A stretch of 34,394 nt of DNA, taken from NCBI GenBank assembly GCA_018303025.1, contig JAGVYZ010000046.1, positions 1 to 34,394 of the forward strand. The letters run 5' to 3'. This DNA comes from Candidatus Woesearchaeota archaeon. Lineage in GTDB: Archaea; Nanobdellota; Nanobdellia; SCGC-AAA011-G17; GW2011-AR20. The translations under genes and the position numbers were made by a program. Shown here in pieces: positions 14,796 to 17,850 of this stretch. The notes below the pieces were generated by a model that did no database searches, was not told the origin of the DNA, and saw only the letters and a program-made list of their open reading frames with translations. The first letter of the stretch is position 1; every line of letters begins with the position of its first letter.

Positions 14796-15308
14796 TTAAC
14801 GACATAAATAAGTAATAAAATCTTGCATAAAAATATGCCCTTTCCAAAATTCTTCTAACTTCTCTTGCATTGAATCAAGATCTCTAAAATGCTGTGATTT
14901 TGTCACAGCATTTTTAGTAACTTTCCAGCAAGTTTCAATAGGATTAAGCTCTGGTGAATATGGTGGAAGATATTCAACTACAAACCTTTTACTATATTTT
15001 TCTATAAGGCTCTTAATAACATCTGTTTTGTGGAATCCTGCATTATCCAAGATAAACAAATATTTTTTGTTGGGCTTTAGCCAAACAAAAAGATCTTTTA
15101 AGAAAAAAGAAAATGTCAAGCTGTTCTGAGCAACATAAAAATCATAATAAAAATTATGTGAACTTGTGAGAGCACCAAAGACAACGAGTTTTTTGTTGCT
15201 CCAAAAGAAAGCTCCTTTTGGTTTCTCTCCTCTAGGAAACCAAATTCTCTTATAATTTTCTTTTAACTGGAAACTTACCTCGTCAATGGCAACTATTTCA
15301 TAACCCAC
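14796..15308 (-). CDS. IS630 transposase catalytic (DDE) part, orfB
   Basis: IDEVSFQL...LDNAGFHK...YLPPYSPELNPIETCW. Confidence 0.9.
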   Translation of the reverse strand: MGYEIVAIDEVSFQLKENYKRIWFPRGEKPKGAFFWSNKKLVVFGALTSSHNFYYDFYVAQNSLTFSFFLKDLFVWLKPNKKYLFILDNAGFHKTDVIKSLIEKYSKRFVVEYLPPYSPELNPIETCWKVTKNAVTKSQHFRDLDSMQEKLEEFWKGHIFMQDFITYLCR

Positions 15309-15751
15309 ATATTTCGATTTGAGTTTTTTTTAAACTCATCTCGAAATTTATCAACTTTTTCTTGGTCATGCTTCAAATGCTGAGGTCTTGGCATAATAAG
15401 TGAAAAGCCAATTTTATGCATAATTCGCTCCACATGACGGAGCGAATATAATTTTCCAATCTCTTGGTGAATAATTTCGCCTATTTCTTTAGTATTTACT
15501 GAGCAATATCCATCATTTGCTTTTTTAATTTTTGTAAGAATCTTATTTTTAAGTCTAATAAGATTCTGTTGCGTCAATTTTGTTGGTCTGCCACTTCTTG
15601 GCAATGTTTCTAAAGTTCTTCCAGATAGATTGTATTTAATCCATCTATGTACAGTGGGCTGGCTACAGCCTATTAATTCAGAAATTTCTTCTTGTTTTTT
15701 TCCTTTATTATATAAATTAATGATTAATTCTCTTTCTTTAATATTTAACAT
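15293..15751 (-). CDS. IS630 transposase HTH part, orfA
   Basis: HTH SELIGCSQPTVHRWIKYN...; overlaps orfB at an A AAA AAC slippery heptamer. Confidence 0.88.
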   Translation of the reverse strand: MLNIKERELIINLYNKGKKQEEISELIGCSQPTVHRWIKYNLSGRTLETLPRSGRPTKLTQQNLIRLKNKILTKIKKANDGYCSVNTKEIGEIIHQEIGKLYSLRHVERIMHKIGFSLIMPRPQHLKHDQEKVDKFRDEFKKNSNRNMWVMK

Positions 15752-17121: not shown

Positions 17122-17334
17122 TTATACCTCGTAAGCTTTTCCAGTAAATTTTGATTTACAGCTTTTGCATTGCCAAATTCCCATTGAATCTCTCTTTACT
17201 TTTGTTTTAGTGCAATAAGGACATTTGTGCCAAGCTTTTAATTTCTTTTCAACTTCTCCAACTTTTTTTCTTAATGTCCTGCCATATCTGGCTTTAAATC
17301 TTCCAGCAGAACTTCTTAATTTTGTCTTTGTCAT
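17122..17334 (-). CDS. rpl37ae: Ribosomal protein L37Ae (eL43)
   Basis: SSAGRFKARYGRTLRKKVGEVE...CPYCTKTKVKRDSMGIWQCKSC. Confidence 0.92.
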   Translation of the reverse strand: MTKTKLRSSAGRFKARYGRTLRKKVGEVEKKLKAWHKCPYCTKTKVKRDSMGIWQCKSCKSKFTGKAYEV

Positions 17335-17554
17335 TTGAATTCCTTGTATTAATTATCTTACAGTCGTTTTAAAAAGCTTTTCCTTTGAGCTTTTCTTTCT
17401 GTAGAAAGAAAATCTTCATCAAAAGAAAGACAAAATGAGAAACCTTCAGGAAAGAAAACACGAAAAAGAAAGAAGCAGAATGAAAACCTTCAGAAAAAAG
17501 AAAGACAAAATGTGAAAATGAAATATGGAGTACATGAGGGTACCAGGATTTGAA

Positions 17555-17578
17555 TTCCCAAACATATTTTCCATGTTT
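17555..17578 (-). other. T-arm 53/54 intron of tRNA-Pro
   Basis: BHB: CCCA/TGGG central helix, bulges GGA and AAT, inner AACAT/ATGTT; excision gives CCAGG TTCAAAT CCTGG. Confidence 0.75.
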
Positions 17579-17630
17579 CCTGGGTCTCAAGGTCCCAAAC
17601 CTCGAAGCCTAAACCAAGCTAGCCGACACC

Positions 17631-17648
17631 TTTACGTCTTTTTTAGAT
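17631..17648 (-). other. Acceptor-region intron of tRNA-Pro
   Basis: BHB: TACG/CGTA central helix, bulges GGA and AAG, outer ACAC/GTGT, inner TCT/AGA. Confidence 0.6.
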
Positions 17649-17850
17649 CCCGTAGTGTGTACTCCAAAATAAAATTCATAATTGCCTTTAATAAACCTTA
17701 CTAAATTAAAAAATTTAAAATAAAATTAGAAAAAAGAAATTTATTTTCAATGAAAGCTAACTGTTTTCTTTTATCGAAGTATTAAGCTTTGCTTAATGCT
17801 AGAAGAGCTTGACTCTTCTTTGATTTTCTTTTCAAAAAGAAAAGCTTCAT

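What the first reader, a model, noticed from the sequence alone, without database searches (positions are those of the whole stretch)
17535..17665. tRNA-Pro(TGG) with a 24-nt T-arm intron and an 18-nt acceptor-region intron; acceptor end unresolved
T-arm intron: CCCA/TGGG helix, bulges GGA and AAT; excision gives CCAGG TTCAAAT CCTGG. The 5' region holds a second regular BHB (TACG/CGTA). Splicing it leaves acceptor CGGGGTG against TACCCTC, with a C1:C72 mismatch. The leader (17658-17665) and trailer form an 8-bp helix GGAGTACA/TGTACTCC just outside, and a hypothetical join GAG+GGTG would pair perfectly with TACCCTC. Possible explanations: a further nested intron, an unusual processing stem, or a tRNA-like relic.
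Basis: partly seen in the sequence, partly recalled or inferred. Interest (0 to 1): 0.78.

Follow-up and report, generated by a model that had tools for sequence, protein, structure and literature searches.

The report
Proline tRNA gene with two introns
This is an intact proline tRNA gene of a woesearchaeal archaeon, cut by two small spliceable introns (one inside the acceptor stem); the unresolved acceptor end was a one-base counting slip, and relatives carry the same intron, which probably forces splicing to happen before the tRNA's 5' end is trimmed.

Summary
On the minus strand (17651-17535) lies tRNA-Pro(UGG) with two strict bulge-helix-bulge (BHB) introns: 18 nt at position 3/4 (17648-17631) and 24 nt at 53/54 (17578-17555). 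No nested intron, GAG+GGTG join or relic is needed. The locus is in a woesearchaeal (DPANN) genome, just upstream of rpl37Ae. Orthologues in relatives have the same 3/4 intron, sometimes with the same 53/54 intron; others are uninterrupted. The 3/4 BHB covaries across 21 distinct loci, including pairs between the 5' leader and the intron or exon. The genome has a short single-gene (alpha-type) splicing endonuclease and RtcB. The leader/trailer helix is real (9 bp) but not conserved: chance or a local stabiliser. Introns at 3/4 and 53/54 are known in other archaea, so this is a new member of a known kind. The most useful inference: the leader is part of the splicing substrate, so splicing must precede RNase P trimming, the reverse of the order reported for Methanopyrus. 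No RNA evidence exists.

The parts
17649..17651 (-). Exon 1: GGG, tRNA positions 1-3
   Evidence: Splice of BHB 1; pairs with C72-U71-C70
17631..17648 (-). Intron 1, 18 nt (ATCTAAAAAAGACGTAAA), at position 3/4 of the acceptor stem
   Evidence: Strict hBHBh': outer ACAC/GTGT, central TACG/CGTA, inner TCT/AGA, 3-nt bulges GG|A and AA|G; orthologous introns at the same site in relatives
17579..17630 (-). Exon 2: tRNA positions 4-53 (rest of 5' acceptor strand, D arm, anticodon arm, 5' T stem)
   Evidence: 79-92% identical to uninterrupted orthologues over the D and anticodon arms
17595..17597 (-). Anticodon TGG (Pro)
17555..17578 (-). Intron 2, 24 nt (AAACATGGAAAATATGTTTGGGAA), at position 53/54 in the T arm
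   Evidence: BHB: central CCCA/TGGG, inner AACAT/ATGTT, outer GA/TC, bulges GG|A and AA|T; same position in G002, G014, G080 and L019 and in the genome's own tRNA-Gln genes
17535..17554 (-). Exon 3: T loop, 3' T stem, 3' acceptor strand TACCCTC and discriminator A73 (CCA not encoded)
17652..17666 (-). 5' leader; its last 7 nt (17658-17652) form one strand of BHB 1
   Evidence: Covariation of leader columns with intron and exon columns over 21 loci
17526..17534 (-). 3' trailer TGTACTCCA, complementary (9 bp) to leader 17666-17658
   Evidence: not conserved in relatives
17122..17334 (-). rpl37Ae, conserved downstream neighbour that anchors orthology
   Evidence: Pfam PF01780 E 4e-23; same neighbour in relatives

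Best explanation
A functional tRNA-Pro(UGG) gene of a woesearchaeal (DPANN) archaeon. Its precursor forms two strict BHB motifs, each cut in its 3-nt bulges by the alpha-type splicing endonuclease and sealed by RtcB. Intron 2 opens the T arm at 53/54. Intron 1 opens the acceptor stem at 3/4, and its BHB is built from the 5' leader: leader -3 to -1 plus G1 form one strand of the central helix, and leader -7 to -4 pair with exon positions 5-8. The acceptor stem therefore cannot form until intron 1 is removed, and intron 1 cannot be recognised once the leader is gone. Splicing should come first, RNase P second. Shown: anatomy, acceptor restoration, orthology, covariation, presence of the enzyme genes. 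Inferred: transcription, cleavage, order of steps, quaternary form of the enzyme.
For: Both BHBs are strict and splicing restores 7/7 acceptor and 5/5 T-stem pairs (shuffle chance 1.7e-4 for intron 1). The same 3/4 intron is beside the same neighbour rpl37Ae in G011, G014 and many Woesearchaeota. A covariance model made from it led to 3/4 introns in 8 genomes of 6 families of the order and matched 14 genomes outside the order but in the same class, 10 of which my script resolved as 3/4 introns. Over 21 distinct loci the BHB has 40 cells with compensatory changes (shuffled mean 9.5, 0/500 as high) and a covariation score of 0.50 against 0.04-0.15 when slid. Uninterrupted orthologues have similar exons. 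It is the only Pro(UGG) gene found in the genome stretches read; Pro(CGG) is the other Pro gene found. Endonuclease: 176 aa with PF02778+PF01974, aligns to the M. jannaschii enzyme 1A79 (E 5e-33), and one such gene per relative. RtcB E 1e-169.
Against: No RNA data. Central-helix pairing was a criterion of my search script, so 100% pairing there is partly by construction; the types of pairs, and the inner and outer helices, are not. The minimum-energy fold of the precursor does not show BHB 1. No convincing RNase P RNA was found in this 87.5% complete genome, although G011, which has the same 3/4 intron, has one (E 3e-39).
Confidence: 0.93

Rival explanations
1. A tRNA relic or pseudogene kept by chance.
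For: Several wobble pairs (G2-U71, G7-U66, G10-U25, U13-G22, G28-U42); missed by standard tRNA finders.
Against: All stems intact after splicing, exons conserved against relatives, only UGG gene found for CCA codons, shared introns under covariation.
Confidence: 0.03
2. A further nested intron joining GAG+GGTG, giving acceptor GAGGGTG.
For: That join would replace the G2-U71 wobble by A2-U71 (sequence).
Against: By inspection no BHB supports that cut; relatives use exon 1 = GGG; the simple splice already gives 7/7 pairs.
Confidence: 0.02
3. The leader/trailer helix is a dedicated processing stem or part of a different end-maturation route.
For: 9 bp, starts right after A73; shuffles give 8 bp or more in about 1%; modelled coaxially on BHB 1 it lowers the energy of the BHB fold from -16.0 to -28.6 kcal/mol.
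Against: Longest such helix in 57 other tRNA-Pro genes is 3-7 bp, with no common position; 1 in 58 genes at about 1% chance is not remarkable.
Confidence: 0.12

Closest known systems
Non-canonical BHB introns of Thermoproteales tRNAs, including 3/4 introns (Sugahara et al. 2008, as reviewed in PMC4090602)
   Same: Short BHB introns at 3/4 and 53/54, several per gene, cut by the tRNA splicing endonuclease.
   Different: Here in DPANN Woesearchaeota and recurrent in tRNA-Pro; strict BHBs with a single short alpha-type endonuclease rather than the crenarchaeal (alpha-beta)2 enzyme.
tRNA-Pro(UGG) of Pyrobaculum islandicum with three introns (PMC4090602)
   Same: Same isoacceptor with several introns.
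   Different: Its introns are at 25/26, 37/38 and 56/57, not 3/4 and 53/54.
Split and intron-bearing tRNAs of Nanoarchaeum equitans (PMC3491384, PMC4090602)
   Same: DPANN archaeon with disrupted tRNA genes and BHB processing.
   Different: Cis-spliced single gene here; N. equitans trans-splices halves and lacks RNase P.

Membership tests
Archaeal BHB tRNA intron (3/4 position) | 4-bp central helix with two 3-nt bulges, cut after bulge nt 2 | tested here: met
   TACG/CGTA with GG|A and AA|G
Archaeal BHB tRNA intron (3/4 position) | Excision restores a complete acceptor stem | tested here: met
   GGGGGTG/TACCCTC 7/7
Archaeal BHB tRNA intron (3/4 position) | Compensatory changes in BHB helices among orthologues | tested here: met
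   40 cells against 9.5 expected, 0/500 shuffles
Archaeal BHB tRNA intron (53/54 position) | Strict BHB and restored T stem/loop CCAGG TTCAAAT CCTGG | tested here: met
   same site in relatives
Archaeal BHB tRNA intron (both) | Splicing seen in RNA | not testable with these tools
   No transcript data held
tRNA-Pro(UGG) | Cloverleaf, anticodon UGG, G37, A73 | tested here: met
   ARAGORN on the spliced sequence
Alpha4-type splicing endonuclease | Single gene of about 180 aa with N and C domains and no second subunit gene | tested here: met
   176 aa, PF02778+PF01974, only match in genome
Alpha4-type splicing endonuclease | Homotetramer | not testable with these tools
   Quaternary structure inferred from gene size and number only

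The most novel reading that the evidence does not exclude
In Woesearchaeota the 3/4 intron of tRNA-Pro makes the 5' leader part of the splicing substrate, so maturation runs splicing first and RNase P second, and in this genome a 9-bp leader/trailer clamp holds the ends together while the acceptor stem cannot form.
Probability: 0.15. Interest if true: 0.6.

Novelty: new member of a known kind. Interest (0 to 1): 0.38.

Why it matters
It shows that acceptor-stem introns, reviewed as an extreme case of Thermoproteales, recur in tRNA-Pro across an uncultured DPANN lineage that appears to have only a single-gene endonuclease. It makes the order of splicing and RNase P directly testable, because the leader covaries with the intron; the reported order in Methanopyrus kandleri is the opposite (PMC3695527). 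It also shows how standard finders miss essential tRNAs in such genomes, which can be misread as gene loss.

Tried and rejected
ARAGORN and Rfam on raw sequence: gene not seen. Minimum-energy folding: not informative for BHBs. GAG+GGTG nested intron: no supporting BHB by inspection. Leader/trailer stem as a conserved element: rejected, absent in 57 other genes. Weak RNase P hit at G000:C52:13032-13158: chance level. First energy script crashed. A literature search for tRNA introns in Woesearchaeota found no report of this, but Sugahara 2008 itself was read only through a review.

Full report
What is there. The minus strand from 17651 to 17535 encodes tRNA-Pro(UGG) in three exons: GGG (positions 1-3), 52 nt (positions 4-53), and 20 nt (54-73), with CCA not encoded. 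Intron 1 is 18 nt at 17648-17631, intron 2 is 24 nt at 17578-17555. The mature sequence is GGGGGTG TC GGCT AGCTTGGTTTA GGCT T CGAGG TTTGGGA CCTTG AGAC CCAGG TTCAAAT CCTGG TACCCTC A. All stems pair: acceptor 7/7, D 4/4, anticodon 5/5, T 5/5.

The BHB around intron 1 is ACAC-TACG-GG|A-TCT...AGA-CGTA-AA|G-GTGT. The cut after GG leaves exon 1 ending ...TACGGG, the cut after AA leaves exon 2 starting GGTG. The join is GGG+GGTG, five Gs, not CGGGGTG. The C1:C72 mismatch, and with it the need for a nested intron or a GAG+GGTG join, vanish.

More than chance. In 200,000 shuffles of the 90 nt upstream of exon 2, a 3/4 BHB with restored acceptor pairs appears in 2.2%, and with inner and outer helices of 3 bp or more in 0.017%. 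A scan of the fetched genome stretches that spliced every plausible BHB, alone or in pairs, and gave the products to ARAGORN recovered this gene with 7/7 acceptor pairs from exactly these two introns.

Which organism. Protein L37Ae (PF01780), encoded just downstream, finds Woesearchaeota and 'Nanoarchaeota' MAGs as nearest named relatives, the best at about 70% identity. The genome is 1.06 Mb, 87.5% complete, with many interrupted tRNA genes.

Relatives. tRNA-Pro(UGG) sits beside rpl37Ae in many relatives. Some are uninterrupted (G008, G012, G016, G017), some have only 53/54 (G002, L019), some only 3/4 (G011, G030, G076), some both 3/4 and 53/54 (this genome, G014, G080), and others 3/4 plus a T-loop intron near 59/60 (L035, L037, L072, L080). 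A covariance model of the 3/4 region searched 103 genomes of the order; of the 30 loci fetched, 8 genomes from 6 families have the 3/4 intron, one of them in tRNA-Pro(GGG). In 371 genomes of the phylum, 15 pass a strict cut, all of the same class; of the 14 that are not this genome, 10 were resolved as 3/4 introns by the script and 4 were not examined further. These numbers are lower bounds because of filters.

Covariation. In 21 distinct loci the three helices hold 85% paired cells, 40 cells with both sides changed (9.5 expected) and a covariation score of 0.50 against at most 0.15 when slid (10-locus version). Central-helix pairing was a search criterion, so weight should be put on the variety of pair types (CG, UA, AU, GU, GC at the first pair) and on the inner and outer helices. 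The varying leader nucleotides lie outside the mature tRNA, so the leader appears to be selected for BHB formation.

Machinery. One endonuclease gene, 176 aa, with both Pfam domains, closest solved relatives the N. equitans catalytic subunit (3IEY) and the M. jannaschii enzyme (1A79). It lies next to an RNase-Z-like gene (by resemblance). RtcB is present. 18 of 21 genomes including this one have exactly one endonuclease match, open frame 177-239 aa, which fits an alpha4 enzyme. Enzymes without the extra loop are reported to need a canonical BHB (PMC12397907), which fits the strict BHBs here. RNase P RNA is found above cut-off in 15 of 21 genomes but not in this one.

How it works. Established enzymology gives cutting in the bulges and RtcB ligation. 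Because leader -7 to -1 form the BHB with intron and exon, and because exon positions 5-8 are sequestered in it, splicing of intron 1 should precede acceptor-stem formation and RNase P cleavage. M. kandleri was reported to trim ends before splicing (PMC3695527), so this gene offers a clear contrast. This order is inferred, not shown.

Leader/trailer helix. It is 9 bp (TGGAGTACA/TGTACTCCA). Shuffles give 8 bp or more in about 1%; among 57 other tRNA-Pro genes the longest is 7 bp. It could stack on BHB 1 and stabilise it, but it is not conserved and I treat it as chance or a local feature.

Novelty. Introns at 3/4 and 53/54 are listed for other archaea in PMC4090602. The new parts are the lineage, the recurrence in tRNA-Pro, and the covariation evidence that the leader belongs to the splice substrate.

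Noticed in passing
L152 (G000:C52, minus strand) and L122 12036-12131 (G000:C28): The genome's tRNA-Gln(UUG) and tRNA-Gln(CUG) carry 53/54 introns very like the Pro one (AGCATAAAGAAAATATGCTGGGAA, AGCATAAGTAAATATGCTGGGAA against AAACATGGAAAATATGTTTGGGAA), suggesting spread of an intron between tRNA genes.
   Followed up: partly
window 14796-15751, minus strand: Two adjacent ORFs with HTH_33 and DDE_3 domains look like an IS630-type transposase in two frames.
   Followed up: partly
G000 whole genome: No convincing archaeal RNase P RNA although most relatives have one; may be incompleteness or divergence.
   Followed up: partly
G000 whole genome: Many tRNA genes are interrupted; ARAGORN sees only 9 uninterrupted ones and 5 more with an anticodon-loop intron, the rest need BHB splicing.
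   Followed up: partly
L008 (G013): The orthologous tRNA-Pro has an intron in the D arm instead.
   Followed up: no
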